The notes beneath the pieces were generated by a model, which was given only the letters and a program-made list of their open reading frames with translations, searched no databases and had not been told where the DNA came from. Both the position numbers and the translations under genes were made by a program. From NCBI GenBank assembly GCA_947489705.1, contig CANLEQ010000033.1, positions 1 to 34,617 on the forward strand: 34,617 nt of DNA, read 5' to 3'. Positions within the stretch are counted from its first letter, which is position 1. Every line of letters starts with the position of its first letter. This document shows positions 7,768 through 25,839 of the stretch, in pieces. Source of the stretch: an uncultured Paracoccaceae bacterium (GTDB lineage Bacteria > Pseudomonadota > Alphaproteobacteria > Rhodobacterales > Rhodobacteraceae).

Positions 7768-9288
7768 ATGACCTATCGCCCCCACGGAAAGCACCTGATT
7801 GCGGGTGAGAGGGTCGGGTCGGACAAGACCTTCGCCTCCGCGCCCGCCGACGGGCCCTCCCACGACTTCTGCGCCGGAACGCCCGCGCTGGTCGACCGGG
7901 CCGCCGAAGCCGCGGAGGCCGCCTTCGACGCCTATGCCGCGACCCCCCGCGAAGACCGCGCCGCGTTCCTCGAGGCGATCGCCGAAGAGCTCGAGGCGCG
8001 GGTCGACGACATCACCCCGACCGCCATGGCCGAGACGGGCCTGCCGGAGCCCCGCATCCGCTCGGTCGAGCTGCCCCGCACCGCCAACCAGATGCGGCTC
8101 TTCGCGCGCCATATCCGCGACGACGCCCATCTCGACCGGCGCCACGACGAGGGCCTGCCCGATCGGACGCCCATGCCGCGCCCCGACCTGCGGATGATCC
8201 AGCGCCCGATCGGACCTGTGGCCGTGTTCGGCGCATCGAACTTCCCGCTCGCCTTCTCGGTGCCGGGTGGCGACACCGCCGCAGCACTCGCGGCCGGCTG
8301 CCCGGTGATCGCCAAGGGGCACGACGCCCATCCCGGCACCGGCGAGCTGGCCGCCGAGGCCATCGCCGCCGCGATCGCGCGCACGGGAATGCCCGCGGGC
8401 ACGTTCTCGTTCCTCCAGGGCGGCGATCTCGGCGTGGGCCAGGCGCTGGTCCGGCATCCCCTCGTCAAGGCCGTGGGCTTCACGGGCTCACTCAATGGGG
8501 GCCGCGCGCTCTACGACCTCTGCGCGCAGCGCGACGAGCCGATCCCCTTCTTCGGCGAGCTCGGCTCGATCAATCCGATGTTCCTGCTTCCCGCCGCGAC
8601 CGAGGCGCGCGGCGCCGAGATCGGCACGGCATGGGCGGGGTCGCTCTGCATGGGGGCGGGTCAGTTCTGCACCAATCCCGGCATCGCCGTGGTGATCGAC
8701 GGCGCGGGCGCCGACGCGCTGCGCGACGCGGCGGCGCAGGCGTTGCACGAGATGGCGCCGCAGACCATGCTGACCGACGGGATCGCGGCGGCCTTCAAGG
8801 GCGGTGCCGCGCGCATGGCCGAAGAGAGGGGCGTGACGCCGCTGGTGACGACCGAACCCGCCGAGCGGTCGGCCACCCCGTTCCTTTTCGAGACGGATGC
8901 CGAGACATGGTTCGCGCGCGAAACGCTCGCCGAAGAGGTGTTCGGGCCGCTCGGCCTGATTGTGCGGTGCCGCGATGCGGGCGAGATGGAGCGGGTCGCA
9001 CGTTCGCTGAAGGGCCAGCTGACCGTCACGCTGCACATGGACGACGCGGATGCCGCCGCCGCGCGGGCCCTTTTGCCGATCGTGGAGCGCAAGGCGGGAC
9101 GCGTGCTCTTCAACGGCTTTCCGACCGGCGTCGAAGTGGCCGAGGCGATGGTTCACGGCGGCCCCTATCCGGCCTCGACGAATTTCGGCGCGACCAGCGT
9201 CGGGACGCTGTCGATCCGCCGCTTCCTGCGGCCCGTGTGCTTCCAGAACATCCCCGAAAGCGTCATGCCGGCCGACCTCGCCGGATGA
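7768..9288 (+). CDS. Aldehyde dehydrogenase, alpha-ketoglutaric semialdehyde dehydrogenase type
   Basis: This 506-residue protein is of the NAD(P)-dependent aldehyde dehydrogenase superfamily. Catalytic residues are Asn158 (FGASNFP), Lys183, Glu264 (FFGELGSINP) and the nucleophile Cys301 (GAGQFCTNPG). The FGELGSINPMFLLP and FCTNPG signatures are those of 2,5-dioxovalerate (alpha-ketoglutaric semialdehyde) dehydrogenases, which make 2-oxoglutarate at the end of oxidative pentose, hexarate and hydroxyproline pathways. The ATG at 7768 has GAGGAG 7 nt upstream. It follows the aldo/keto reductase by 40 nt and is probably the last gene of that operon, with a 157-nt gap before glpS. Other steps of such a pathway (lactonase, dehydratases) are not in this window. 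Confidence 0.85.
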   Translation: MTYRPHGKHLIAGERVGSDKTFASAPADGPSHDFCAGTPALVDRAAEAAEAAFDAYAATPREDRAAFLEAIAEELEARVDDITPTAMAETGLPEPRIRSVELPRTANQMRLFARHIRDDAHLDRRHDEGLPDRTPMPRPDLRMIQRPIGPVAVFGASNFPLAFSVPGGDTAAALAAGCPVIAKGHDAHPGTGELAAEAIAAAIARTGMPAGTFSFLQGGDLGVGQALVRHPLVKAVGFTGSLNGGRALYDLCAQRDEPIPFFGELGSINPMFLLPAATEARGAEIGTAWAGSLCMGAGQFCTNPGIAVVIDGAGADALRDAAAQALHEMAPQTMLTDGIAAAFKGGAARMAEERGVTPLVTTEPAERSATPFLFETDAETWFARETLAEEVFGPLGLIVRCRDAGEMERVARSLKGQLTVTLHMDDADAAAARALLPIVERKAGRVLFNGFPTGVEVAEAMVHGGPYPASTNFGATSVGTLSIRRFLRPVCFQNIPESVMPADLAG

Positions 9289-13867: not shown

Positions 13868-15589
13868 ATGAACCTATCGCTCAGATCGACCACCGCAGTC
13901 GCGGTGGCGCTCGGGTTTCTCTCCGTTCCCGCCTTCGCGGGCATGGAAGAGGCCATGGAATTCCTCGACACCGAAATCGACGGCGTCTCGACCCTGTCCC
14001 GCGAGGAGCAGGAAGCCGAGATGCAGTGGTTCATCGATGCGGCCGAGGCGTTCCAGGGCATGGACATCAACGTCGTCTCCGAGACGATCACCACGCACGA
14101 ATACGAATCCCAGGTGCTGGCCCCGGCCTTCTCGGCCATCACCGGCATCAACCTGACGCATGACCTGATCGGCGAGGGCGACGTGGTCGAACGCCTCCAG
14201 GTCCAGATGCAGTCCGGCCAGAACGTCTATGACGCCTTCGTCAACGACAGCGACCTGATCGGCACCCACTGGCGCTACGGTCAGGCACGCAACCTCACCG
14301 AATGGATGGAGGGCGAGGCGGCCGACGTGACCTCGCCGACGCTCGATCTCGACGATTTCATCGGGCTCGAGTTCACCACCGCGCCCGACGGCGCGCTCTA
14401 CCAGCTTCCGGACCAGCAATTCGCGAACCTCTACTGGTTCCGGTACGACTGGTTCAACGACGAGAAGAACCAGGCCGATTTCCAGGAGGAATACGGCTAC
14501 GAACTGGGCGTGCCGGTGAACTGGGCCGCCTACGAGGATATCGCCGAGTTCTTCACCGGCCGCGATCTCAGCCACATGGACATCGACGGCGAGATCTACG
14601 GCAACATGGATTACGGCAAGAAGGACCCCTCGCTCGGATGGCGCTATACCGATGCGTGGATGTCGATGGCCGGGATGGGCGACACGGGCGAGCCCAACGG
14701 CCTGCCGGTCGACGAATGGGGCATCCGCGTCAACGAGAACTCGCAGCCCGTCGGCGCCTGCATGGATCGCGGCGGTGCCACGAACTCGCCCGCGGCTGTC
14801 TATGCCGTCGACAAGGCGATCGAGTGGCTCCAGAACTACTCCCCGCCCGCCGCGGCCGGCATGACCTTCTCCGAGGCCGGTCCGGTTCCCGCACAGGGCC
14901 AGATCGCGCAGCAGATGTTCATGTACACCACCTTCGTGCCGCCTCTCGTGGCCTCCGAAGAGGTGATGAACGAGGACGGCACGCCCAAATGGCGCCTCGC
15001 CCCCTCGCCGCACGGCGTCTACTGGGAAGAGGGCATGAAGGTCGGCTATCAGGACGTGGGCTCCTGGACGATCCTCGACAGCACGCCGACCGACCGGGCC
15101 AAGGCCGCGTGGCTCTATGCGCAGTTCGTGACCTCCAAGACCGTCGACGTGAAGAAGTCCGACGTGGGGCTGACCTTCATCCGCGACAGCACGATCAACT
15201 CCGAGCATTTCACCGAGCGCGCGCCGCGTCTGGGTGGTCTGGTCGAGTTCTATCGCTCGCCCGCACGCACGCAATGGTCGCCCACGGGCACCAACGTGCC
15301 GGACTATCCCAAGCTGGCACAGCTCTGGTGGCAGAACATCGGCGACGCCATGTCGGGCGCCAAGACCACCCAGGCGGCCCTCGACACGCTCTGCTCGGAC
15401 ATGGAGGACGTGATGAGCCGGCTCGAGCGGGCCGGCGTCCAGGGTGATCTGGGTCCCGTGCTCAACGACGAGGAGAGCGCGGAATACTGGCTCGAACAGC
15501 CCGGCGCGCCCAAGCCGGCCCTCGAGAACGAGGAAGAAGAGCCCGAGACGATCTCCTACGACGAGCTCGTCCAGTCCTGGCAGCAATAG
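13868..15589 (+). CDS. glpV: Glycerol ABC transporter substrate-binding protein GlpV
   Basis: This 573-residue precursor, much longer than most sugar-binding proteins, has the size typical of GlpV. A signal peptide (NLSLRSTTAVAVALGFLS, then VPAFA) ends near residue 24. The mature domain has the two-lobed type with many aromatic residues, as in LYWFRYDWFND (about 190-200), that could line a polyol pocket. The C-terminus is rich in Glu (NEEEEPETISYDEL). The ATG at 13868 follows GGGAGGA by 6 nt. The binding protein would capture glycerol in the periplasm for GlpPQST. No glpD, glpK or glpR is present beside the operon. Confidence 0.88.
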   Translation: MNLSLRSTTAVAVALGFLSVPAFAGMEEAMEFLDTEIDGVSTLSREEQEAEMQWFIDAAEAFQGMDINVVSETITTHEYESQVLAPAFSAITGINLTHDLIGEGDVVERLQVQMQSGQNVYDAFVNDSDLIGTHWRYGQARNLTEWMEGEAADVTSPTLDLDDFIGLEFTTAPDGALYQLPDQQFANLYWFRYDWFNDEKNQADFQEEYGYELGVPVNWAAYEDIAEFFTGRDLSHMDIDGEIYGNMDYGKKDPSLGWRYTDAWMSMAGMGDTGEPNGLPVDEWGIRVNENSQPVGACMDRGGATNSPAAVYAVDKAIEWLQNYSPPAAAGMTFSEAGPVPAQGQIAQQMFMYTTFVPPLVASEEVMNEDGTPKWRLAPSPHGVYWEEGMKVGYQDVGSWTILDSTPTDRAKAAWLYAQFVTSKTVDVKKSDVGLTFIRDSTINSEHFTERAPRLGGLVEFYRSPARTQWSPTGTNVPDYPKLAQLWWQNIGDAMSGAKTTQAALDTLCSDMEDVMSRLERAGVQGDLGPVLNDEESAEYWLEQPGAPKPALENEEEEPETISYDELVQSWQQ

Positions 15590-15598
15590 GCGCCGACG

Positions 15599-15632
15599 CT
15601 CCGGGGCACGCGCGTGCAGCCGTGCCCCGGAG
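15599..15632 (+). terminator. Strong hairpin closing the glp operon
   Basis: CTCCGGGGCAC (15599-15609) and GTGCCCCGGAG (15622-15632) form a perfect 11-bp stem with a 12-nt loop, 10 nt after the glpV stop. It is followed by a C-rich stretch and not a T-run. It lies between convergent operons and may serve both directions. Confidence 0.65.
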
Positions 15633-15735
15633 ACCTCTCCCCCCACCCTCGCGACGGAAGCTCCGCCGGATCCCCCGCGACGATCCTGCAGATACGCGTC
15701 AGCCGGTCGAGCGATATGCGCCCCCGAAGATCCGC

Positions 15736-17130
15736 TCAGGGAAGGATCGTGCCCGGCAGTGCGGACCAGAGCACCCGCCACGTGACGCTCGCGGCAAGGA
15801 GCAGCGCGAGCGCGGTCCAGAGCGTGCCACGCGCCATCCCGCCGAGCGTGGCGATGCCGCTTTCGGGCGCCACGCCGAAGACGCCCGGCCCCACGATCCG
15901 TAGATAGTAGAAGAGCGACAGGGCGGTGTTGGCGATCGCGACCACCACCAGCCAGCCCAGCTCGGCGTCGAGCGTCGCGGTGAAGAGCGCGAACTTGCCC
16001 AGAAACCCCGCCAGCGGCGGGATCCCCACGAAAGACAGGAACGCCAGGATCAGCGCGCAGACGATGCCGGGCCGGACGCGGATCAGGCCTGCCCAGTCGT
16101 TGCGTGCGGTGCGTCCGCGCAATTCGGCCACGGCGGCGAAGGCCACGATGTTGGCCACGGCATAGACGCCCATGAAGGCCAGAAGCGCGGGCAGCGCCTG
16201 CGGCGTGCGCCCCGCCACCGCCACGGCCATCAGCGCATATCCCGTCTGGCTGACCGACGACCATCCGATGAGCCGCCGCAGATCCTCCTGCCAGAGTGCC
16301 GAGAGATTGCCGAGCGTCATGGTGAGGGCCGCCACCAGCGCCACCAGAAGCGACAGCGTCTGCACGCCCGGGGCGAGCGAGATCAACCGGTAGAGCGCCA
16401 CCGCACCCGCGATCTTCGGCACCACGGTCAGGAACGCGGCCGCGGGCACGGGCGCACCTTCGGCGACATCGGGCACCCAGGCATGACCCGGAACGGCGCC
16501 GAGCTTGAAGAACAGCCCCGTCACGATCAGCACGAGCCCCGTCAGCGTCAGCGGATCGTCCGGGATCGATCCCGAAAGCTGCCGGTAATCGGTGCTGCCG
16601 GCCATGCCCGTCACCAGCACCGCGCCGATCACCAGAAGCCCGTTGGCCAGCGCGCCCATGAGGAAATACTTCATCCCCGCTTCGAGCGAGATCTCCCAGT
16701 CGCGGTGATAGGCGGCGAGCACATAGCCCGTGACCGAGGACAGAAGTACCCCCATCACCAGCTGCATGAGATCCGCGGCACCCGCCATCGCCATCGCGCC
16801 CAGCGCCGAGAGGAGAAGCATGGCATAGAATTCGCCGTGCCGCCGGTCAGTCGTGAACCAGCGCGGCGCCAGTGCCGCGCAGGATGCGGTGACCCCGAGG
16901 ATCAGCAGGCGCGCCCAGGCGGTCGCCCCGTCGATCGCGAACGTCCCCGAGAAGGTCAGCCGCGTCTCCCCCGCCATCGCGTGGGCGAGGATCGCCGCCA
17001 CGGCGAGCCCAGCGATCGCCAGGATGGCGCACCAGCCATGCCGGCGCTGCGGCAGGATCATCGCCAGAAGCAGCACGGCCAGGGCGGTGAACAGGACGCC
17101 GAGCTCGGGGGCGAGATCGCCGATCGGCAT
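15736..17130 (-). CDS. nuoN: Complex I-like antiporter-type subunit NuoN
   Basis: This 464-residue protein of about 14 membrane helices is homologous to the NuoN proton-pumping subunit. The TM7 lysine is Lys209 (FFKLG), followed by HAWVPDVAEGAP, and the TM8 lysine is Lys239 (VPKIAG). The usual TM5 glutamate (E. coli NuoN GIEL) is Leu129 here, in MGVLLSS. The ATG at 17130 has GGAGGG 6 nt upstream and lies one base after the nuoM stop. It is the last gene of the eight-gene membrane-arm cluster, and the nearest downstream gene is the convergent glpV. Loss of the TM5 acid suggests that proton translocation in this subunit is altered. Confidence 0.88.
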   Translation of the reverse strand: MPIGDLAPELGVLFTALAVLLLAMILPQRRHGWCAILAIAGLAVAAILAHAMAGETRLTFSGTFAIDGATAWARLLILGVTASCAALAPRWFTTDRRHGEFYAMLLLSALGAMAMAGAADLMQLVMGVLLSSVTGYVLAAYHRDWEISLEAGMKYFLMGALANGLLVIGAVLVTGMAGSTDYRQLSGSIPDDPLTLTGLVLIVTGLFFKLGAVPGHAWVPDVAEGAPVPAAAFLTVVPKIAGAVALYRLISLAPGVQTLSLLVALVAALTMTLGNLSALWQEDLRRLIGWSSVSQTGYALMAVAVAGRTPQALPALLAFMGVYAVANIVAFAAVAELRGRTARNDWAGLIRVRPGIVCALILAFLSFVGIPPLAGFLGKFALFTATLDAELGWLVVVAIANTALSLFYYLRIVGPGVFGVAPESGIATLGGMARGTLWTALALLLAASVTWRVLWSALPGTILP

Positions 17131-17131
17131 C

Positions 17132-18607
17132 TCAGCCCTCCGCGCCCGCAAGAGGCAGAATTCCGCCCGCATCGACGAGGCCCAGAAGCCATGCCGGCCA
17201 GAGCCCGATCAGCACGACGAGAGCCAGCAGGACCGCCAGAAGCCCGAGCTCCAGCCCGGTGAGATCCGCGAAGCCGGCCCGTTCGGGCGGGGTCACCCCG
17301 AAGAACATCTGCCGCAGCATTCCGAGAAACAGCGCGGCGGTGATCACGATGCCCAGAAGGCCGATGGCCGCGAGCCAGGGATAGACGCCGAAGGCGCCGA
17401 CGAAGATGTGCAGCTCCGCCACGAACCCCGCCAGTCCCGGCAGGCCCAGGGAGGCGAAGGCGGCAAGCGTGGCCACCCCCGCAAGGCGCGGGGCGGGCCC
17501 GGCAAGGCCACCGAAATTCGGCAGGTGGTAATCCTGCGTGCGCTGCCAGACGGCGCCCGCGATCAGGAAGAGCGCGCCGGTGATGAGGCCGTGCGCGATC
17601 ATCTCGACCACCGCGCCGGTCAGGGCGAGCTCGCGCGCCGTCTCGGAGCCCAGCGCGGACCCCGCCACCGCGATCCCCAGAACGGTGTAGCCCATGTGGT
17701 TGACCGAGGTGTAGGCGATCCGCCGCTTGAGGTTGTCCTGCGCGAACGCCACGACGCTGCCCCAGAGGATCGAGACCACGCCGAGGATCGCGAGCGGCAG
17801 CGCCCAGCGCGCGAAGGTCTCGGGCATCATCTGGAGCGGTATCCGGATCAGCCCGTAGGCCCCCATCTTGAGCAGCACCCCCGCCAGCAACGCCGAAGCA
17901 GGGCCGGGCGCGTTCACATGCGCGGGCGGCAGCCAGGTATGGACCGGAAAGACCGGCGTCTTAATCCCGAAGCCCACCACGAACGCCAGGAAAACGAGCC
18001 CCGGCACCATGCCCGCAGCGGCGAGCGGCGGGCTCCCGATCATCGCGCGCATGTCGAAGGTCAGCTCGGGCATGTTGAGGGCCAGCGCGATGATGCCGAT
18101 CAGGATCAGCAACGATCCCGCCAGCGTGTAGACGAAGAACTTGAGCGCCGCATGCTGCGCCTCGCCGTGCCCCCAGCGGCCGATCAGGAAATACATGCCC
18201 ACGAGGCCGAGATCGAAGAAGACATAGAACACGATCAGGTCCAGCGTCACGAAAAGCCCGATCGACACCCCCGCGAGAAAGGCCATCCAGGCGTAATAGG
18301 CCCGCGCGTCGGGCAGATCCTCCATCGGCCAGGCGGTGGTGACGGCAAAGAGCAGCGCGCTCATCAGCGCGAGCGCCAGCGACATGCCGTCGACACCCAC
18401 CCGCCAGGCGATTCCCAGTTCGGGGATCCACGGCACCTCGGCCACGGCACGGAACCCTTCGCCGCCGCCGATCCAGGTCACGACGAGCGCCAGCAGCGCC
18501 AGCGCGGCTGCCCCGGTCGCGATCGCACGTGCCGCGGCGTGCCCCACGGGGACGAAAGCGAGGAGGAGGGCCGCGAAAAGCGGGACGAGAACGGCGAATG
18601 TGAGCAT
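17132..18607 (-). CDS. nuoM: Complex I-like antiporter-type subunit NuoM
   Basis: This 491-residue protein with about 14 membrane helices is homologous to NuoM. The TM7 lysine is Lys216 (GIKTPVFPVHTWLPPAH), and Lys247 (LLKMGAYGL) matches the TM8 lysine. The TM5 position that is glutamate in canonical NuoM (E. coli Glu144) is Asp132 here (VFFDLG), a conservative change. The ATG at 18607 is preferred over the upstream 18640. It starts one base after the nuoL stop codon and lies close to a GAGG-like site. Short spacing to nuoL and nuoN shows cotranscription. Confidence 0.9.
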   Translation of the reverse strand: MLTFAVLVPLFAALLLAFVPVGHAAARAIATGAAALALLALVVTWIGGGEGFRAVAEVPWIPELGIAWRVGVDGMSLALALMSALLFAVTTAWPMEDLPDARAYYAWMAFLAGVSIGLFVTLDLIVFYVFFDLGLVGMYFLIGRWGHGEAQHAALKFFVYTLAGSLLILIGIIALALNMPELTFDMRAMIGSPPLAAAGMVPGLVFLAFVVGFGIKTPVFPVHTWLPPAHVNAPGPASALLAGVLLKMGAYGLIRIPLQMMPETFARWALPLAILGVVSILWGSVVAFAQDNLKRRIAYTSVNHMGYTVLGIAVAGSALGSETARELALTGAVVEMIAHGLITGALFLIAGAVWQRTQDYHLPNFGGLAGPAPRLAGVATLAAFASLGLPGLAGFVAELHIFVGAFGVYPWLAAIGLLGIVITAALFLGMLRQMFFGVTPPERAGFADLTGLELGLLAVLLALVVLIGLWPAWLLGLVDAGGILPLAGAEG

Positions 18608-18608
18608 C

Positions 18609-20513
18609 TCAGCCTCCGATGATGACGAGCGTAAGGGCAAGCGCGAGGCCCGCCACGAGAATCGTGTAGTAATGATGTGCGAGACCCGTCTGCAGGCGGC
18701 GCAGATCGGCGCCGGCCATGCCGGTCACGCGGCCCGTCCCGCTCGGGATGAGGTCGCTCAGCCGTTCGCCGAGGCCCGCGCCGAGCCCGGAGAGGGCGGC
18801 CATCCCCGCCGCGATCCCGCCGATCGCCCCCTGCATTCTTCGCGATGCGCCGCCGGGGGCGAGGCCGTCGATCGCGTGGTCGTCGACCTGCGAGGCGAAC
18901 CGGGCGAGCGAGGCCGCGATGCGGGCGGTTCCGCGCGGGATCATGTCGACAACCCCGTCGTCGAACCGCGCGGCGGCCTCGGCGCATCGCCGGAACGGCC
19001 GGATCGCGCCGTGTTCGTAAAGCGCGGACAGTCCCAGCCAGTCGCGCTGAGGCGCGGGCCATCCCGCGCGCGCGGCGCGAAGACCCGCCAGTACGCCGAA
19101 GGCCGTCGCGGCCAGTGCCACGATGAAGCCTGCGCGCGTTCCGGCAGGCAGATCCCCGCCAAGCCACTCAGCCGCCCGATCGTGCATCCAGGGCAGCCAG
19201 AGCGCAGAGAGGCCGAGCGTTCCTGCCACGAGAACCGCCAAGCCCGCCAACTCGCCACGCGCCTCGCCCGTTTCGCGCGCGAAACATTTTCCGAAGAGCG
19301 AAACCGCGAAGCGCGTCGCATAGGCGGCGCCAAGCCCGCCCGCGGCGATTCCGGCCGCCGCCCAGAACACGCTCGCATGTTCCAGCGCGCGGACGATCGC
19401 CTCCTTGCTCCACCCGCCGGCGAAGGGGGGCACGGCGGCGAGCGACAGTGCGGCGACGGCGGCCATCGCCGCGGTCGCGGGCAGGCTGCGCCCGATGCCC
19501 TTCATGCGCAGATCGAAGCTGCCGGTGGCGCGATGGGCGATGCCCGCCGCGAGAAAGAGCGCGGACTTCGTTGCGGCATGCACGATCAGGTGCAGGACCG
19601 CGACGGCCGGGTAACCCGCGCCCACCGCCGCGATCATGAGGCCGGTCTGGGCCGAGGTCGATCCCGCCAGCAGCTTCTTGGCATGGGTCTGCCGCAAGGC
19701 GACGACGCCCCCGAGGATGGCGGTCGCAAGTCCGATCCCCATGGCGGCGATCCCGAAGCCCGGTGCCGCCGAAAGCTGGGGGTGGAGGCGCGCGAGGATA
19801 TAGGCCCCGGCCGCCACCATGGTGGCCGAATGGAGCAGCGCCGAGACCGAGGTCGGGCCGTCCATGGCCCGGAAGAGCCAGGGCGCGAAGGGGACTTGGC
19901 CCGCCTTCGAGACGGCCGCCACGAGAAGACCGAACGCCGCAAGCGTCAAGCTCCACCCGTCGAGCGCGCCGAGCGCGTCGTAGCCGGCACGTCCCGTCGC
20001 CGCGACGGTCGCCATGAGCGCCAGGAACAGGCCCAGATCGCCGGCGCGCGTCAGCACGAACGCGAATGCCGCCGACGGGCCCGCTGCCCGTTCGCGCCAC
20101 TTGTGCCCGATGAGCGCCCAGGAACAGGCGCCGACGATCTCCCACCCGATCAGTAGGGTGACGAGATCGGCGGCGATCACCACGAGCTCCATCCCGCCGG
20201 TGAAGATCAGCATGAGGCCGATCAGGCGGGGCAGACCGCGCGCCGCCTCGTGCGCGGCCGCGAAGAGCGTGACCGCCAGCAGGATCGCGGGCACCGTGAC
20301 CGCGACCGCCTGCGCCAGCGGCGGCAGCGCCGCGTGGAGCGTGAACGCCTCGCTCCAGCCATGGCGCCCCGTCGCACCGCCAAGCCCGACCGCAAGCCCC
20401 AGCACGACCATGGCCGTCACGGCGCCCGACGCGCCGAGGCGGATCCGCGATCCCCCGCTTGCCCAGATCGCCAGCCCGGCCAGCACCGGAAGATATGCCA
20501 GTGCCCAGATCAC
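18609..20513 (-). CDS. nuoL: Complex I-like antiporter-type subunit NuoL
   Basis: This 634-residue protein is homologous to NuoL, the distal pump of the membrane arm with the long lateral helix. Key residues are present: Glu125 (IGWEIVGACSW), Lys203 (VSKAGQVPFAPWL), His228 (LLHSATMV) and the downstream GGWSKEA lysine. The C-terminal 150 residues include a long helix-rich segment and a final membrane helix after RLQTGLAHHYY, consistent with the lateral helix and anchor. The GTG start at 20513 overlaps the nuoK stop by four bases (GTGA). This is the antiporter-like subunit of the cluster that looks most canonical. Confidence 0.9.
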   Translation of the reverse strand: MIWALAYLPVLAGLAIWASGGSRIRLGASGAVTAMVVLGLAVGLGGATGRHGWSEAFTLHAALPPLAQAVAVTVPAILLAVTLFAAAHEAARGLPRLIGLMLIFTGGMELVVIAADLVTLLIGWEIVGACSWALIGHKWRERAAGPSAAFAFVLTRAGDLGLFLALMATVAATGRAGYDALGALDGWSLTLAAFGLLVAAVSKAGQVPFAPWLFRAMDGPTSVSALLHSATMVAAGAYILARLHPQLSAAPGFGIAAMGIGLATAILGGVVALRQTHAKKLLAGSTSAQTGLMIAAVGAGYPAVAVLHLIVHAATKSALFLAAGIAHRATGSFDLRMKGIGRSLPATAAMAAVAALSLAAVPPFAGGWSKEAIVRALEHASVFWAAAGIAAGGLGAAYATRFAVSLFGKCFARETGEARGELAGLAVLVAGTLGLSALWLPWMHDRAAEWLGGDLPAGTRAGFIVALAATAFGVLAGLRAARAGWPAPQRDWLGLSALYEHGAIRPFRRCAEAAARFDDGVVDMIPRGTARIAASLARFASQVDDHAIDGLAPGGASRRMQGAIGGIAAGMAALSGLGAGLGERLSDLIPSGTGRVTGMAGADLRRLQTGLAHHYYTILVAGLALALTLVIIGG

Positions 20514-20815
20514 TGCTTCAGCGTTCCGATGCTTTCGGTCATGTCGGCCTGGCGCTTGCGATAGATCGCCACGACCAGCGCGAAACCCACGGCCATCTCG
20601 ACCGCCATGACCGCCATGACGAGGATCGCCAGCAGCTGTCCTTCGGGCATGCCGCCCAGCGCCTGCGACCAGAATCCGATGATGGCCAGCAGCGCGCCGT
20701 TCAGCATCAGCTCGAGGCCCATCATCAGCATGACAAAGCTTTGCTGGCTGAGCGCGCCGTAGAGCCCGATGCCGATCAGCGCAGCCGCCCCCAGAAGAAC
20801 GATGATCAGCGTCAT
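20510..20815 (-). CDS. nuoK: Complex I-like subunit NuoK
   Basis: This 101-residue protein has three membrane helices. Both membrane glutamates needed in canonical NuoK are present: Glu35 (MGLELMLNG) and Glu73 (MAVEMAVGF). The protein ends in a short basic tail (YRKRQADM). The ATG at 20815 overlaps the nuoJ stop by four bases, and its own stop overlaps the nuoL GTG. Mrp-type antiporters also contain a NuoK-like subunit (MrpC), but the presence of NuoA, H and J homologues here points to a complex I relative. Confidence 0.9.
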   Translation of the reverse strand: MTLIIVLLGAAALIGIGLYGALSQQSFVMLMMGLELMLNGALLAIIGFWSQALGGMPEGQLLAILVMAVMAVEMAVGFALVVAIYRKRQADMTESIGTLKQ

Positions 20816-21414
20816 GAATGCCCCCCGTGATGATGATGTCCGCCGCCGCTTTCGGGCCGCCGGCCGGCGGGCGGACCGCCGGGATCGAGGCCCGGGGGGC
20901 GCGCGCCCTCGTCGGCGGCGCCGAAGCGGCCCCGGCGCGACGACAGGATCACCGCGCCGATCATCGTCGCCAGAAGCGTCACCCCCGCCGTCTCGAAGAT
21001 CAGCATCGACGGCCCCAGAAGCTCGTGCCCGAGCTGCGCCACCACAGGGGCCTCTGCCGGAACCGGGTTCGACGGCAGCGGCGTCGACAGGATTGCCACC
21101 CCGAGCCCCGTGGCCGCAAGAAGGCCCGCCGCGATCGAAATCCGGTGCTGGTGGACCATGACCATCGGATTGAGACCGGCCGGGTTCATCATGAACATCA
21201 CCATGAAGATCGCCATGACCATCATCTCGACCGCCATCATGAAGATCGTGGCGATGCCGATATAGGGCGCCGACAGCACCACGCCGATCCCGCCCACGGC
21301 GACGAAGGACAGCATCAGCGAGAACGAGGCCCGCACCATCGAATCGACGCGGAAGACCCGCCATCCGGTCCAGGCGGCGAAGGCGGCGAGCAGGCTGACG
21401 ATCAGATCGGTCAC
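20812..21414 (-). CDS. nuoJ: Complex I-like subunit NuoJ with Met-rich helix and His-rich tail
   Basis: This 200-residue protein with about five membrane helices is in the position and size of NuoJ. Two features are unusual. Residues 59-86 contain 11 methionines in 28 residues, spanning one membrane helix and its exit. The C-terminus (163-200) is a Gly/Pro-rich tail ending in HHHHGGHS, which could bind a metal. The GTG start at 21414 overlaps the nuoH stop (GTGA). The similarity to canonical NuoJ is low, so the identification rests on both the helices and the fixed order H-J-K. Confidence 0.8.
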   Translation of the reverse strand: MTDLIVSLLAAFAAWTGWRVFRVDSMVRASFSLMLSFVAVGGIGVVLSAPYIGIATIFMMAVEMMVMAIFMVMFMMNPAGLNPMVMVHQHRISIAAGLLAATGLGVAILSTPLPSNPVPAEAPVVAQLGHELLGPSMLIFETAGVTLLATMIGAVILSSRRGRFGAADEGARPPGLDPGGPPAGRRPESGGGHHHHGGHS

Positions 21415-22271
21415 AATGCGAGAACTCCCGATATGGCGAGGTGCAGGAACGACAGGGGCAGCAGGATCACCCACAGGATCGACAGCATCCGCGACGGCGT
21501 GGTCCGCGCGATTCGCCGGCCGCCCAGGACGAAAAGCGCCATCAGCCCCGCGATCTTGAGCCACAGCCAGACCGGTCCGGGCAGGACCGGCCCGAGCGGG
21601 CCGCCGAGAAAGACCGTCGCGGCGATCGCCGAGACCGAGACCAGCATCGCGGCACGCGCGATGTCCCAGAGCACGCGCGCCGGGCCGCTTTCCTCGGCCG
21701 AAGTGCCGGTGGCGATGTCGGCGGCGTCGGCGTAATCCATCGGCCCCCGCAGGGTCAGCGCCAGCGCCACGATGCAGAAGAGCGGCAGGCCCAGTGGCTG
21801 ACGGATCACGTTCCAGAGCTCCCGCTGGCTGTCGACGATGGCGACGAACGACAGGCTCTCGGCCGGCAGGGCGGCGGCGATGAGGACGAACATCGACGGC
21901 AGCAGGACCGGCAGGCCGATGGCCGCGTAGCGGTAGGCGCCGATCAGCGGAAAGGGCGCGTTGGGCGACCAGCCGTGCAGGAAGACCGTGACGACGATCA
22001 ACGCCTCGCAACTGCCCCAGACGACGATGCCGACGGGGCTGTCGATCAGCGCCGCACCCTCGGCGAAGGGCACGACCGAGAGGCCGATCGCCGCCAGCGC
22101 CAGATACCATGCCGGCGCGAGGTCGCGGTTGAGGCGGTCGGGCGCCTCGGTCTCCACCCGCTGCCGGGCGCCCTGCGCGGCGAGGATGGCAAGCCGTCCA
22201 TCGAGGGCGACGGCCAGCAGCGCCCCGAAGGCCAGGGTGGCCAGAACGGCGAGAACGAGCCCTGCGATCAT
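21411..22271 (-). CDS. nuoH: Complex I-like subunit NuoH (reduced)
   Basis: This 286-residue protein is homologous to NuoH, the subunit that with NuoB and NuoD forms the quinone chamber. It is shorter than usual (about 325-345). Recognisable segments are GWSPNAPFPLIGAYRYAA (100-117), LTLRGPMDYADA (172-183) and SAIAATVFLGG (214-224). The GPNRVGP loop and the E-rich loop of the canonical protein (EAExELxxGYxxEYSG) are replaced by unrelated residues (ADAADIATGTSAEESG, 181-196). The glutamate of the canonical SYE motif is also missing. The ATG at 22271 overlaps the preceding gene by four bases (ATGA). Confidence 0.85.
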   Translation of the reverse strand: MIAGLVLAVLATLAFGALLAVALDGRLAILAAQGARQRVETEAPDRLNRDLAPAWYLALAAIGLSVVPFAEGAALIDSPVGIVVWGSCEALIVVTVFLHGWSPNAPFPLIGAYRYAAIGLPVLLPSMFVLIAAALPAESLSFVAIVDSQRELWNVIRQPLGLPLFCIVALALTLRGPMDYADAADIATGTSAEESGPARVLWDIARAAMLVSVSAIAATVFLGGPLGPVLPGPVWLWLKIAGLMALFVLGGRRIARTTPSRMLSILWVILLPLSFLHLAISGVLAL

Positions 22272-23182
22272 GCCGCCTCCCGCAGGCGCGTCGCGCGCAG
22301 GATCGACGAGGGCGGCAGGGATGCCAGCACCAGCATCGCCTCGGCCCATTCGAGGCCCGACAGAAGTTCCGGCAGTGGCGGCACGGCCAATGCGGCCGGG
22401 GTTCCGGCGAGATAGCCCGCAAGCCTTTCGCGCGCATCGCCGCCCCCCTCGATTCGGCCGAGCCCGCGCGGGACGGCGCCGCGCAGCCATAGCGCACCCG
22501 GCCGGCCGCCGCGGATCACCCGTCGCGCGGCATCTTCGAGCCCGAGCAGCGCCAGCATCCGGGCGCTGCAAAGCACCGGCGCGTCGGCATCGGCGGGCTG
22601 TGCGAAAGGTGGGCAGACGACGCCCGCATCGCAGATCACGTCGCCCTGCAAGGTCAGCTCCAGCACCAGGCCCGGCGGCAGCATCGGCGCGAACGGGCCG
22701 AGCCGCGCGGTATAGCGGTCGAGTTGAAGACCGTCGCGGATATCGAGGCCGGTCATCGCCATCGGCCGTCCATAGGGCGTGCCGCCCATCATGCCCGTGC
22801 CGCCCTGTCCGTGCGGGCCCACGCCACGCCATGCGTTTGACGGCGCGTCGGGTTGCAGATCGTCGTCGCCATCCTCGCCCCCGCAAAGTCCGCGCCACGC
22901 CGTTGCGAGCCGGTCCGCGACGGCATCGCCGGTCTCGGTCCGATCGGTCCAGCGCAGGATCCGCCGTGGCCGCGGAACCTGGTCGTGAACGCGCCCCAGG
23001 GGCTCCATCGCATCGGGGGGCAGATCGCCGGCCAGGAGAAGGACGGCCGCATCGCGCGGCGTGAGCGCACGCCGCAGCCCGCGCCGCGCCAAGAGCCGCT
23101 CGACATCGGCCTGCCGCCCGGGGCCGATCGCGGCGAAGACGGGCACGGGCGCGCGCAGGGCCAGCCGGGCGAGCGGGCTCAT
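22268..23182 (-). CDS. Degenerate NuoB/NuoD-like fusion protein of the membrane-arm cluster
   Basis: This 304-residue soluble protein is not identifiable by a single clear family. Residues 36-80 resemble the NuoB segment after its first cysteines: TPRDAAVLLLAGDLPPDAME, then RVHDQVPRPRRIL compares with the canonical QADVxIVAGTxxxxMAPxL, then xVYDQMPEPRxVI. Residues 157-183 (YTARLGPFAPMLPPGLVLE, then LTLQGDVI) resemble the N-terminal strand domain of NuoD. Between them is a Gly/Met-rich loop GPHGQGGTGMMGG (122-134). Only four cysteines occur (100, 184, 190, 205), none in the paired CC pattern that binds cluster N2. No Fe-S or quinone chemistry is expected. The ATG at 23182 overlaps the nuoA stop (ATGA), and an alternative ATG lies at 23188. 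The homology call is mine by eye. Confidence 0.6.
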   Translation of the reverse strand: MSPLARLALRAPVPVFAAIGPGRQADVERLLARRGLRRALTPRDAAVLLLAGDLPPDAMEPLGRVHDQVPRPRRILRWTDRTETGDAVADRLATAWRGLCGGEDGDDDLQPDAPSNAWRGVGPHGQGGTGMMGGTPYGRPMAMTGLDIRDGLQLDRYTARLGPFAPMLPPGLVLELTLQGDVICDAGVVCPPFAQPADADAPVLCSARMLALLGLEDAARRVIRGGRPGALWLRGAVPRGLGRIEGGGDARERLAGYLAGTPAALAVPPLPELLSGLEWAEAMLVLASLPPSSILRATRLREAA

Positions 23183-23514
23183 TCCCATCGGAACACCCCC
23201 TCGCGCCAGCCATAGAGGATGCCCACCGACAGGATGGCGAGGAACATCCCCATCTCGGCCAGCGCCGTGAGGCCTTCGGAGACGAAGACGACGGCCCAAG
23301 GATACATGAACATCATCTCCATCTCGAAGGCGATGAAGACCAGTGCCATCGTGTAGGGACGGAAGTGATACCTCTGCCAGGCATGGCTGTCGGGTGTTCC
23401 CCCGCCAAGGAACGGCGCGGCCTGCGGCGCGCTCGACGCGGCCGCCTTCATGCCCTGCCGCGCCAGAAGCGCCGCGAGCAAGGCCCATCCCGCGAGAATG
23501 ACAAAGGTCTGCAA
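23179..23514 (-). CDS. nuoA: Complex I-like subunit NuoA
   Basis: This 111-residue protein has three membrane helices and heads the cluster. The conserved C-terminal half is plain: RPYTMALVFIAFEMEMMFMY (52-71) followed by PWAVVF matches the canonical segment ending in FDLEVAFLFPWAV. The loop that normally carries YECGxxP next to the quinone chamber reads APFLGGGTPDS (33-43), without the ECG motif. The TTG start at 23514 is chosen because GAGGGG precedes it by 9 nt and the first helix then begins at once. The LacI-type gene stops 117 nt upstream, and no clear promoter is visible there. NuoA-BD are translationally coupled. Confidence 0.85.
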   Translation of the reverse strand: MQTFVILAGWALLAALLARQGMKAAASSAPQAAPFLGGGTPDSHAWQRYHFRPYTMALVFIAFEMEMMFMYPWAVVFVSEGLTALAEMGMFLAILSVGILYGWREGVFRWE

Positions 23515-23630
23515 GCGGAGATACCCCTCTTCGTTTGCCCGACCAATCGGTTGGCACCGGCACGGGTTCCGATGCGCCGTGACCCCGGCCCTGGCGATCG
23601 GCCTCCCGCCCTGCCCCGCCGGCGCTCCGA

Positions 23631-24647
23631 TCAGCGCGTGCCGGCGGGCGGCGGGCCGGAACTGCCGCGCAGGATCAGCTCCACCTCGATGACCTCCGAG
23701 CGTTCGTCCCTCGTGCCGCTCTCGATCATCGACAGAAGGATCTCGGCCGCGCGGATCCCCAGCCGGGTCCGCGGCTGCCGGATCGTGGTCAGCGGCGGGC
23801 TCAGATGCTGCGCGATCTCGATATTGTCGAAACCGACGATGGAGACGTCGCGCGGCACCCGGAACCCCGCGCGCTGGACCGCGCCGATGAACCCCACGGC
23901 CATCTCGTCGGACGACAGGAAAAGCGCGGTGGGCCGTTCGGCCATCGCCAGCCAGACCTCTGCGGCCGCCGCCCCCGACGCCATGGTGAAATCGCCCTCG
24001 AGCACCCAGTCGTCGCGCACCGGCAGCCCGTGCATCTCCAAGGCCCGGCGATACCCCTCGAGCCGGGCCCGGGTCAGCACGTTCGCCGGCGGGCCCGCCA
24101 CATGGCCGATCCGGCGATGCCCCAGCTCCGCGAGGTGCGCGACGGCGAGCGCGGCGCCGCGATCGTTTTCCACCCGGACGGACGGCATCGCGCTCTGCGT
24201 CCATTCGCAGACCGCCACCGCCGGGGGGCGGCTCGGCATCTCGAGGGTCGCGGGCGATATGGTCCCGTCCAGAACCACTAGGCCGTCGGCCTGCCCCGAG
24301 GCCAGGTAATCGGCGAGCCGGTCCTGCGGATCCGGCCCGGATTTCGTATCGGCGATCAGCATCCCGTACCGCGCGGGGGTGAGGATCGACGACAGCCCCG
24401 CGAGGATCTGTGAGAAGAACGGGTTCGCGATGTTGGGCAGGAGGACGATCACGGTGCCGGTGCGCTGTCGCCGCAGGTTCGAGGCGGTGGCGTTGACCCG
24501 GTAGCCGGTCTGGGCGATCGCGCTCAGGACCGCCTCGCGCGTGGCCTCGGCCACCACAGCGGGCCTCGAAAGGGTCCGGCTGACGGTTGCCGCCGACACG
24601 CCGGCGGCACGTGCAACATCCTGAATGGTGGCAATTTTTCTGTCCAT
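23631..24647 (-). CDS. LacI-family transcriptional regulator
   Basis: This 338-residue protein has an N-terminal helix-turn-helix plus hinge (ATIQDVARAAGVSAATVSRT, 6-25, a close match to the LacI family) followed by a periplasmic-binding-protein-like sensor domain that binds a sugar or a sugar derivative. It diverges from the sugar-uptake operon at 24781 across 133 nt of DNA that contains repeated TGYAAACG sites, so it is the likely local repressor of that operon and of itself. It reads in the same direction as the complex I-like cluster, but the 117-nt gap and unrelated content argue against joint function. The inducing ligand cannot be predicted from residues seen here. Confidence 0.9.
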   Translation of the reverse strand: MDRKIATIQDVARAAGVSAATVSRTLSRPAVVAEATREAVLSAIAQTGYRVNATASNLRRQRTGTVIVLLPNIANPFFSQILAGLSSILTPARYGMLIADTKSGPDPQDRLADYLASGQADGLVVLDGTISPATLEMPSRPPAVAVCEWTQSAMPSVRVENDRGAALAVAHLAELGHRRIGHVAGPPANVLTRARLEGYRRALEMHGLPVRDDWVLEGDFTMASGAAAAEVWLAMAERPTALFLSSDEMAVGFIGAVQRAGFRVPRDVSIVGFDNIEIAQHLSPPLTTIRQPRTRLGIRAAEILLSMIESGTRDERSEVIEVELILRGSSGPPPAGTR

Positions 24648-24662
24648 GCGGATCCCATCCCG

Positions 24663-24740
24663 ATCGTTTGATACATGGCCGCGTTATTTTTGCTTGTAAA
24701 CGCATCCTGCATTGGTAACGCTTGCCTGCAAACGATTACA
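24663..24740 (+). promoter_or_regulatory. Divergent control region with LacI-type operator sites
   Basis: Three related sites lie between the LacI gene and the isomerase gene: ATCGTTTG (24663-24670, inverted), TGTAAACG (24695-24702) and TGCAAACG within the near-palindrome TGCAAACGATTACA (24727-24740). The second and third are 32 bp apart, about three helical turns. CG-centred palindromes of this kind are typical LacI-family operators. Confidence 0.5.
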
Positions 24741-24780
24741 TCATCGCCCGGGGGGAGCTGGGCGAGAAGGGGGGATTACC

Positions 24781-25839
24781 GTGAAGACCATCAAAGGTCC
24801 CGCGCTGTTTCTGGCACAATTCGCCGGGGACGACGCACCGTTCAACTCGTGGACCGACATCACCCGCTGGGCGGCCGATTGCGGCTACGAAGGCGTTCAG
24901 GTTCCGAGTTGGGACCCGAGGATCATCGACCTCGACCAGGCGGCCGAGAGCAAGACCTATTGCGAGGATTGGGCCGGCCAGGGGCGCGAGAACGGCGTCG
25001 AGGTGACCGAGCTTGCCTGTCACATGCAAGGACAGCTCGTCGCGGTCCACCCCGCCTACGACATCGGGTTCGACGGCTTTGCCCGCGAATCGGTGCGCGG
25101 CGATCCCGCCGCCCGGCAACGCTGGGCCGTCGATCAGGTCGAGAAGACGATCAGGGCCTCATCCAATCTGGGGCTCACCAAGATGCCGACCTTTTCGGGC
25201 GCGCTCGCGTGGCCCTATCTCTATCCCTGGCCGCAGCGTCCCGCCGGATTGATCGAGACCGCTTTCGACGAGCTCGCGTCGCGGTGGCGTCCGCTGCTCG
25301 ACCTCGCCGACGAACACGGGGTCGACGTCTGCTACGAGATCCATCCGGGCGAGGACCTTCACGACGGGGTGACGTTCGAGATGTTCCTCGACCGGGTCGA
25401 CAACCATTCCCGCGCGATGATGCTCTACGATCCGAGCCATTTCGTGCTGCAATGCCTCGACTACGTCGCGCATCTCGACATCTACGCCGAGCGGATCGGC
25501 GCGTTCCACGTCAAGGACGCCGAGTTCAACCCGACCGGGCGTCAGGGCGTCTATGGCGGCTATCAATCCTGGGTCGACCGGGCCGGACGGTTCCGCTCGC
25601 CCGGCGACGGGCAGGTGGATTTCGTCGCGATCTTCTCCAAGCTCGCGGCGATGGATTTCGACGGCTGGGCGGTCGTCGAATGGGAATGCGCGCTGAAACA
25701 CCCCGAGGACGGGGCCCGCGAAGGGGCGGCCTTCGTGCGCGACCACATCATCCGGGTGACGCCGCACGCCTTCGACGATTTCGCGGATGGCGGCACGGAT
25801 GCCGAAGCGAACAAGGCAATGCTGGGGTTGTCGCGATGA
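24781..25839 (+). CDS. Sugar phosphate isomerase/epimerase-type TIM-barrel protein
   Basis: This 352-residue protein belongs to the xylose-isomerase-like TIM-barrel (AP endonuclease 2) superfamily. Candidate metal ligands are Glu186 (CYEIHPGED), Asp217 and His220 (YDPSH), His243 and Asp246 (FHVKDAE) and Glu300 (VVEWE). All are present, so an active divalent-metal enzyme is expected. Relatives include IolE, epimerases such as YcjR and 3-keto-glycoside lyases/hydrolases. The next gene is a Gfo/Idh/MocA dehydrogenase, a pairing often seen in oxidation at C3 of sugars or inositols. The GTG at 24781 follows AGGGGGG by 6 nt and starts the conserved barrel. The stop overlaps the next gene's start. 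The substrate is unknown. Confidence 0.85.
   Translation: MKTIKGPALFLAQFAGDDAPFNSWTDITRWAADCGYEGVQVPSWDPRIIDLDQAAESKTYCEDWAGQGRENGVEVTELACHMQGQLVAVHPAYDIGFDGFARESVRGDPAARQRWAVDQVEKTIRASSNLGLTKMPTFSGALAWPYLYPWPQRPAGLIETAFDELASRWRPLLDLADEHGVDVCYEIHPGEDLHDGVTFEMFLDRVDNHSRAMMLYDPSHFVLQCLDYVAHLDIYAERIGAFHVKDAEFNPTGRQGVYGGYQSWVDRAGRFRSPGDGQVDFVAIFSKLAAMDFDGWAVVEWECALKHPEDGAREGAAFVRDHIIRVTPHAFDDFADGGTDAEANKAMLGLSR

What the first reader, a model, noticed from the sequence alone, without database searches (positions are those of the whole stretch)
15736..23514. A complex I membrane arm encoded without any electron-input module
Eight genes in one coupled run encode A, a B/D-like protein, H, J, K, L, M and N. 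Seven are homologues of the whole membrane arm. No NuoC, E, F, G or I gene is present, and the cluster is bounded by a LacI gene and by the convergent glp operon, so it is complete here. Six of the seven junctions are four-base overlaps or one-base gaps typical of a stoichiometric complex. It is not an Mrp antiporter, which has no NuoH, A or J homologue, and not a DabAB-type system, which needs a DUF2309 protein. The working idea is a complex I relative that moves ions without NADH:quinone chemistry, or that borrows an electron donor in trans.
Basis: partly seen in the sequence, partly recalled or inferred. Interest (0 to 1): 0.85.

Follow-up and report, generated by a model that had tools for sequence, protein, structure and literature searches.

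The report
Copper-linked, redox-dead complex I relative
A bacterial gene cluster encodes the membrane half of respiratory complex I with its electron-handling half replaced by metal-binding parts; its relatives often sit beside copper-resistance genes, so it may be a proton-coupled metal (probably copper) transporter rather than a respiratory enzyme.

Summary
Eight coupled genes (window 15736-23514, minus strand) encode NuoA, a NuoB/NuoD-like cap, and NuoH, J, K, L, M, N, without C, E, F, G or I. The genome has a full canonical nuo set elsewhere and a second copy of this cluster. In 37 related loci no ORF has a redox subunit as best match. The cap lacks all four NuoB cluster-N2 cysteines (19 of 19 aligned); the quinone motif is gone in 8 of 8 full NuoD domains.

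New here: (1) sister-type caps carry 1-5 heavy-metal-binding motifs (21 of 21), window-type NuoJ a His-rich tail (16 of 16), never both. (2) Met makes up 17 of 47 family-fixed changes in A/J/K, the E-channel subunits, against 2 of 57 in H/L/M/N. (3) 13 of 16 plasmid clusters have copper-named genes within the 10-16 kb flanks fetched, against 2 of 9 control stretches.

Best reading: a redox-dead, proton-coupled heavy-metal (probably Cu+) transporter. Copper linkage is well supported; transport and direction are inferred. The bare gene layout is in print as a "partial nuo operon" for marine or osmotic adaptation. The window copy has no copper genes nearby.

The parts
23179..23514 (-). NuoA-like subunit, 111 aa; keeps the two acids of FEMEMMFMYPWA, gains Met at E. 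coli positions 80, 82, 85
   Evidence: PF00507 E 1.5e-22; alignments
22268..23188 (-). Cap protein, 306 aa: NuoB-like first half without the N2 cysteines, then a shortened NuoD-like part with the invariant GMMGGxPxGRxMAMT block
   Evidence: Weak NuoB hit; alignment; AlphaFold and Foldseek; cysteine check
21411..22271 (-). NuoH-like subunit, 286 aa, without the canonical N-terminal ERR...GPNRVG stretch
   Evidence: PF00146 E 1.5e-39; alignment
20812..21414 (-). NuoJ-like subunit, 200 aa; Met-rich third helix (FMMAVEMMVMAIFMVMFMM) and His-rich C-terminal tail (GGGHHHHGGHS)
   Evidence: PF00499 E 1.6e-17; Met columns; tail
20510..20815 (-). NuoK-like subunit, 101 aa; both channel glutamates kept, gains Met at E. 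coli positions 30, 66, 69, 73
   Evidence: PF00420 E 1.1e-17
18609..20513 (-). NuoL-like antiporter subunit, 634 aa; proton-path residues kept
   Evidence: PF00361 E 3e-50; best NCBIfam hit subunit L
17132..18607 (-). NuoM-like antiporter subunit, 491 aa; proton-path residues kept (E144 is Asp)
   Evidence: PF00361 E 8.7e-61; TIGR01972 over cut-off
15736..17130 (-). NuoN-like antiporter subunit, 464 aa; lysines kept, E133 and H305 lost
   Evidence: PF00361 E 1.1e-55; best NCBIfam hit subunit N

Best explanation
A complex I-derived, redox-dead membrane complex that handles a soft heavy metal, most probably Cu(I), coupled to proton movement. Shown by sequence: the membrane arm is complete; proton-path residues of L, M and K and the lysines of N are kept; the cap is a NuoB/NuoD relative without iron-sulphur or quinone sites; every member examined has a metal-binding element (His-rich J tail or heavy-metal-binding domains in the cap); helices around the E-channel carry fixed methionines; many clusters lie among copper genes. 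Inferred: cap and tail collect metal in the cytoplasm and hand it to the Met-rich A/J/K region; protons entering through L, M and N drive its export to the periplasm, where neighbouring multicopper oxidases and efflux systems act. Metal binding at the old quinone site would replace quinone chemistry as the coupling event. Direction and metal identity are not shown. The score is for proton-coupled metal transport; I give about 0.8 to the weaker claim of a role in copper or heavy-metal homeostasis.
For: No redox subunit as best match in 37 loci. N2 cysteines absent in 19 of 19 caps, HRGxE deleted in 8 of 8 full D domains. Cap halves fold like NuoB (weak E-values) and, in the sister type, NuoD (E 1.3e-11). 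Heavy-metal-binding motif in 21 of 21 sister-type caps; J tail with 4-33 His in 16 of 16 window-type, 0-1 in 21 sister-type and 0-3 in 27 canonical rows. Met is 17 of 47 family-fixed changes in A+J+K, 2 of 57 in H+L+M+N; ten J columns are Met in 37 of 37 family rows and at most 1 of 27 canonical rows. Proton-path residues kept. Copper-named genes near 13 of 16 plasmid clusters against 2 of 9 control stretches. The genome's second copy sits by CDF, ZIP, Sco1, MerR-like and heavy-metal P-ATPase genes.
Against: No experiment. No copper gene was found with 21 probes in the window's 34.6 kb, nor beside L002 and L003; 13 of 23 unnamed or contig loci were negative (one of them, L035, has MerT and an HMA protein), and of the 16 plasmid clusters L111 and L112 had none and L167 only a heavy-metal P-ATPase. 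Copper genes are common on such plasmids. The Met cluster is not shown to cross the membrane. NuoN lost E133 and H305, so part of the proton machinery is changed. Zn, Ag or Hg fit almost as well; the own second copy has zinc-type neighbours. A few members have frame breaks (L109 NuoH, L168 and L119 caps).
Confidence: 0.45

Rival explanations
1. Metal-gated proton conductance: copper bound at the cap opens or closes proton flow through the arm to protect membrane potential or pH under metal stress; no metal crosses the membrane.
For: Same anatomy. J TM3, the E-channel gate in complex I (PMC10212512), is where Met residues cluster.
Against: Ten fixed Met in J plus seven in A and K are many for a gate alone; keeping three antiporter subunits looks costly for a leak.
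Confidence: 0.2
2. Proton or sodium pump/antiporter for marine or osmotic adaptation, as published for the partial nuo operon.
For: Marine hosts; PMC3314556, PMC6002675, PMC6676996 (passages); antiporter subunits kept.
Against: Does not explain metal-binding domains, His tails, fixed Met or copper neighbours. PMC6676996 itself notes the operon beyond marine strains and discusses a strain from copper-rich mine fluid.
Confidence: 0.12
3. Copper supply machine: moves or loads copper for cuproenzymes such as oxidases and multicopper oxidases rather than detoxifying.
For: Sco1, DsbA and cytochrome c genes near some copies.
Against: Neighbours are more often resistance genes (CueR, Cu P-ATPase, CopB, CusA).
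Confidence: 0.1
4. Complex I variant that borrows an electron donor in trans.
For: Membrane arm and a B/D-like cap are present.
Against: No N2 cysteines, no HRGxE motif, no NuoI-type protein in the run, NuoH R37 lost in 37 of 37.
Confidence: 0.03
5. Decaying remnant of a complex I operon.
For: Redox motifs lost; a few members have frame breaks.
Against: Same eight genes in order in two phyla, residues fixed across 37 loci.
Confidence: 0.02

Closest known systems
Respiratory complex I (NDH-1), including this genome's own copy at C4
   Same: A, H, J, K, L, M, N homologous and in the same order; proton-path residues mostly kept; cap related to NuoB and NuoD
   Different: No C, E, F, G, I; no N2 cysteines, no quinone motif; Met-rich E-channel helices; metal-binding elements
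'Partial NDH-1 operon' of Salinispora, Kocuria and Streptomyces (PMC3314556, PMC6002675, PMC6676996; passages seen)
   Same: nuoA, a hypothetical protein, nuoH, J, K, L, M, N in that order (PMC6676996)
   Different: Published reading is ion pumping for marine or osmotic adaptation; their sequences were not compared here, so kinship is likely but untested
Mrp Na+/H+ antiporter
   Same: Complex I-type antiporter subunits used without redox chemistry
   Different: Here NuoH and NuoA homologues and a B/D cap are present; Mrp lacks NuoH and NuoA (recalled)
Group 4 hydrogenases, MBH and MBS
   Same: B- and D-like cap on a complex I-type arm; Foldseek lists MBH, formate hydrogenlyase and MBS chains
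   Different: Those keep FeS/NiFe or FeS chemistry (recalled); here the cysteines are gone
DabAB inorganic-carbon systems
   Same: A NuoL-type subunit with a cytoplasmic metal-binding partner (recalled)
   Different: No DUF2309 hit in the eight proteins
Copper efflux systems (P-type ATPase CopA, CusCBA)
   Same: Neighbours in many loci; HMBD also occurs in Cu P-type ATPases and RND adaptors (rows)
   Different: Unrelated proteins; a different energy source is proposed here

Membership tests
Respiratory complex I (NDH-1) | Membrane arm of A, H, J, K, L, M, N | tested here: met
   Pfam and NCBIfam
Respiratory complex I (NDH-1) | Electron-input subunits C, E, F, G, I | tested here: not met
   No ORF in 37 loci with these as best match
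Respiratory complex I (NDH-1) | Cluster N2 cysteines in NuoB | tested here: not met
   Absent in 13 window-type and 6 sister-type caps
Respiratory complex I (NDH-1) | Quinone motifs of NuoD (HRGxE, HPxxHG) | tested here: not met
   Gone in 8 of 8 sister-type D domains; the window's D part is too short to test
Respiratory complex I (NDH-1) | Lysine/glutamate proton path in L, M, N, K | tested here: met
   Kept except N E133 and H305; M E144 is Asp in the window type
Mrp antiporter | MrpA-G gene set, no NuoH or NuoA (recalled) | tested here: not met
   NuoH (PF00146) and NuoA (PF00507) homologues present
DabAB | DUF2309 partner protein (recalled) | tested here: not met
   No such hit in the eight proteins
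Group 4 hydrogenase / MBH / MBS | Metal-cluster cysteines in the cap subunits | tested here: not met
   NuoB-type cysteines absent; NiFe cysteines not examined separately
Copper-homeostasis systems | Copper genes nearby | tested here: met
   13 of 16 plasmid clusters, 2 of 9 controls; but not in the window
Copper-homeostasis systems | Copper binding, induction or transport | not testable with these tools
   Needs experiment
Partial nuo operon of marine actinomycetes | Same gene order | tested here: met
   Order given in PMC6676996 matches
Partial nuo operon of marine actinomycetes | Sequence kinship | not tested
   Those genomes could not be reached (not accepted); Rubrobacter members were found instead

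The most novel reading that the evidence does not exclude
Complex I has been converted into a proton-driven Cu(I) exporter: the iron-sulphur/quinone module became a metal-loading cap and the E-channel a methionine-lined copper path, making a new class of energy-coupled metal transporter, in part carried on plasmids.
Probability: 0.35. Interest if true: 0.93.

Novelty: new variant of a known kind. Interest (0 to 1): 0.8.

Why it matters
If the complex I membrane arm can be driven by, or can drive, metal binding at the old quinone site, it is a natural experiment on how that site is coupled to distant proton channels: same arm, different trigger. It would also add a machine to bacterial copper handling that annotation now labels NADH-quinone oxidoreductase, and would change the published marine or osmotic reading of such clusters.

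Tried and rejected
Electron donor in trans, decayed remnant, Mrp, DabAB and hydrogenase: weighed above and set aside. Promoter/terminator scan of 15400-24900: no promoter-like site (0.6 expected) and 4 terminator-like sites (4.1 expected), so nothing on regulation. I looked by eye at the stretch before nuoA for a CueR-type dyad and saw none; no tool test. Class scan with the cap core (385 genomes): besides the own genome, the rows listed match only the NuoB-like half (E 1.4e-11 or weaker); the list was cut. Of the weak hits, L047 around G110 showed no nuo-like gene and G324 was not followed. The fixed Met could not be placed in 3D (no complex coordinates). The cap model is modest (mean pLDDT 64.8, 108-170 disordered) and no Foldseek hit reaches E 1e-3, though 32 of the first 32 are NuoB/PSST/hydrogenase small-subunit-type chains of complex I relatives.

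Literature: ten searches; judged by listings, none gave a paper linking a complex I membrane arm to copper; three returned nothing. The library is open-licence PMC only. PMC3314556, PMC6002675, PMC6676996 and PMC10212512 were seen as passages, all others only as listings.

Corrections made on re-checking: the 27 canonical NuoJ/NuoK rows include the own genome twice (26 distinct NuoJ); the frame breaks; the glp label not confirmed.
Full report
What is there. The window is contig C33 of a 156-contig genome. Minus-strand genes 23514-15736 encode NuoA, a 306-aa cap, NuoH, J, K, L, M and N. Junctions are one 10-base overlap (A/cap), four 4-base overlaps and two 1-base gaps. A LacI-family gene lies upstream on the same strand; downstream the run converges on ABC-transporter genes. 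No C, E, F, G or I gene is in the run. The genome has a canonical complex I at C4: blastp with E. coli subunits finds A, B, CD, E, F, G, H, I, J, K, L, M and N there. A second copy of the eight-gene cluster lies on C16, subunits 71-91% identical. The genus is probably Palleronia: contig 1 of the same-genus genome G066 has the same length (868,730) as the Palleronia rufa contig; an inference.

Where else. In 394 genomes of the family, 21 matched the cap at E <= 0.001; six had strong matches, own included. Nine of the weaker ones were read and proved to be a sister type. Altogether 37 loci were read: 16 window-type, 21 sister-type. No ORF in them had NuoB, CD, E, F, G or I of E. coli as best match; some contigs end within the cluster (L044, L046). 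The 16 plasmid clusters (15 strains) all show A - cap - H - J - K - L - M - N, in Alphaproteobacteria, Halomonas (Gammaproteobacteria) and Rubrobacter (Actinomycetota). Frames are broken in L109 NuoH and in the caps of L168 and L119. In the phylum scan 9 of 398 genomes, own included, match the D-like half of the cap. In the genus, 7 of 14 genomes, own included, have at least one extra divergent NuoJ. A NuoJ tree puts 35 distinct family rows on one side of a 100/100 branch from 26 canonical rows; sister type 93/96, window type 87/60 (with long-branch warnings).

The cap is redox-dead. Its first half folds like NuoB (prob 1.00, E no better than 1.7e-3). In the sister type the C-terminal part is a full NuoD fold (model; Foldseek E 1.3e-11 to Paracoccus NuoD; PF00346 E 2.8e-15). 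In the window type this part is shortened; Halomonas has an intermediate (PF00346 E 2.7e-7). The four NuoB cysteines are absent in 19 of 19 caps; HRGxE is deleted and HPxxHG altered in 8 of 8 D domains. NuoH R37 is kept in 0 of 37, and NuoA E51 (0 of 36) and NuoH K140 (0 of 37) are lost; A_E51 - H_K140 is a closed-state contact in Table 2 of PMC10212512 (passages).

Metal-binding parts. Sister-type caps carry 1-5 CPMHP motifs (21 of 21; a lower bound where the cap is cut or broken, L046 and L119); Pfam HMBD (PF19335) was found in each of the four sister-type caps scanned. Window-type NuoJ proteins end in a His-rich tail (4-33 His, 16 of 16) against 0-1 in 21 sister-type and 0-3 in 27 canonical rows. 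The presumed metal site has moved between subunits but was seen in every member. As the NuoJ TM3-4 loop faces the peripheral arm (PMC10212512), the J tail should be cytoplasmic, like the cap; an inference.

Methionines at the E-channel. PMC10212512 states that A, J, K and part of H form the E-channel and that J TM3, with its pi-bulge at the key tyrosine, gates it. Here J TM3 reads FMMAVEMMVMAIFMVMFMM (window) or, in most sister-type rows, IMMMATEMSVMAIFMVMFMM. Thirteen J columns are Met in 37 of 37; ten are Met in at most 1 of 27 canonical rows, including Y59. K gains Met at 30, 66, 69 and 73 near kept E36 and E72; A gains Met at 80, 82 and 85 beside kept acids 79 and 81. Of substitutions fixed in the family and differing from both reference sets (E. 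coli, own), Met takes 17 of 47 in A+J+K and 2 of 57 in H+L+M+N (Fisher p 1.8e-5). Rows are related and only two references were used, so p is a guide. J also gains a Glu at 62.

Proton path. L keeps E144, K229, K399, H254, H338 and D178 in 36 of 36; M keeps K234, K265, E407, with E144 as Asp in the window type; N keeps K217, K247, K395 but loses E133 and has Gln for H305; K keeps both glutamates, one as Asp in one row.

Neighbours. Counting products that name copper, Cu(I) or multicopper in the stretches fetched (flanks 10-16 kb, cut at record ends), 13 of 16 plasmid clusters are positive (two are near-copies in one Roseivivax strain); L111 and L112 have none, L167 only a heavy-metal P-ATPase. 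Nine 25.9-kb stretches elsewhere on nine of these plasmids give 2 (L159, L161). The nine were all cluster-positive and not drawn at random. With 21 metal-gene probes on 23 unnamed or contig loci, 10 had copper- or heavy-metal-type neighbours, some only P-ATPases at 34-49% identity; 13 had none of these, including the window, L002 and L003. Among the 13, L035 has MerT and an HMA protein by Pfam, and several contigs are short. The own second copy lies by two CDF genes, ZIP, DsbD, Sco1 and MerR-like and P-ATPase matches.

Mechanism. Shown: complete arm, kept proton residues, dead redox site, metal elements, Met cluster, frequent copper neighbours. Inferred: cytoplasmic Cu(I) is taken by cap or tail, enters the Met-rich region where the quinone-driven change used to start, and is exported at the cost of proton entry through L, M and N. 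I give 0.45 to proton-coupled metal transport, 0.35 to Cu(I) export, 0.8 to metal homeostasis in general, 0.2 to a metal-gated proton valve.

What is known. The seven-gene 'partial NDH-1 operon' was reported in Salinispora (PMC3314556), Kocuria (PMC6002675) and Streptomyces (PMC6676996), the last giving nuoA, hypothetical protein, nuoHJKLMN and reading it as osmoadaptation. That paper discusses, in this context, a strain from copper-rich mine fluid, and PMC6002675 tabulates the genes in a Kocuria from a copper mine. I saw passages only. The ten library searches gave no paper with a copper role for such a cluster; subscription journals are not held.

Limits. No experiment; metal identity open; the window locus lacks copper neighbours; the Met cluster is not shown to reach the periplasm.

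Noticed in passing
L038 6013-6699; L039 12575-13261; L043 3586-4272; L045 12541-13224; also L111, L124, L125, L127, L167, L168: A DUF6629 gene lies near many sister-type clusters, a possible partner of unknown function.
   Followed up: partly
L111 7346-7861; L127 1152-1955; L168 6609-7832: Short extra 'proton-conducting transporter membrane subunit' genes (NuoN-like for L111 and L127) beside the DUF6629 gene, perhaps fragments of an antiporter subunit.
   Followed up: no
L104 and L105: Roseivivax marinus TCYB24 carries near-identical copies of the cluster plus CueR, P-ATPase, multicopper oxidase and cytochrome c genes on two plasmids.
   Followed up: no
L110 9591-10282: Xanthobacter autotrophicus pXAUT01 has only a NuoA-like gene and a short B-like piece annotated as hydrogenase large subunit, apparently a remnant, near a bilirubin oxidase gene.
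   Followed up: no
L107, L114, L116-L118 caps: Halomonas-type caps (436-438 aa) keep more of NuoD than the window's cap; L114 (345 aa) is shorter: steps of a wearing-down NuoD.
   Followed up: partly
G000, G1119, G1124: Three genomes of the genus hold two copies of the divergent NuoJ; the own two copies are not nearest neighbours in the NuoJ tree.
   Followed up: partly
window 30664-33960: A 1098-aa protein with bacterial Ig/cadherin-like domains near the contig end.
   Followed up: no
window 7768-9288: An aldehyde dehydrogenase family gene upstream of the ABC-transporter genes; the glp label for that operon was not confirmed.
   Followed up: partly
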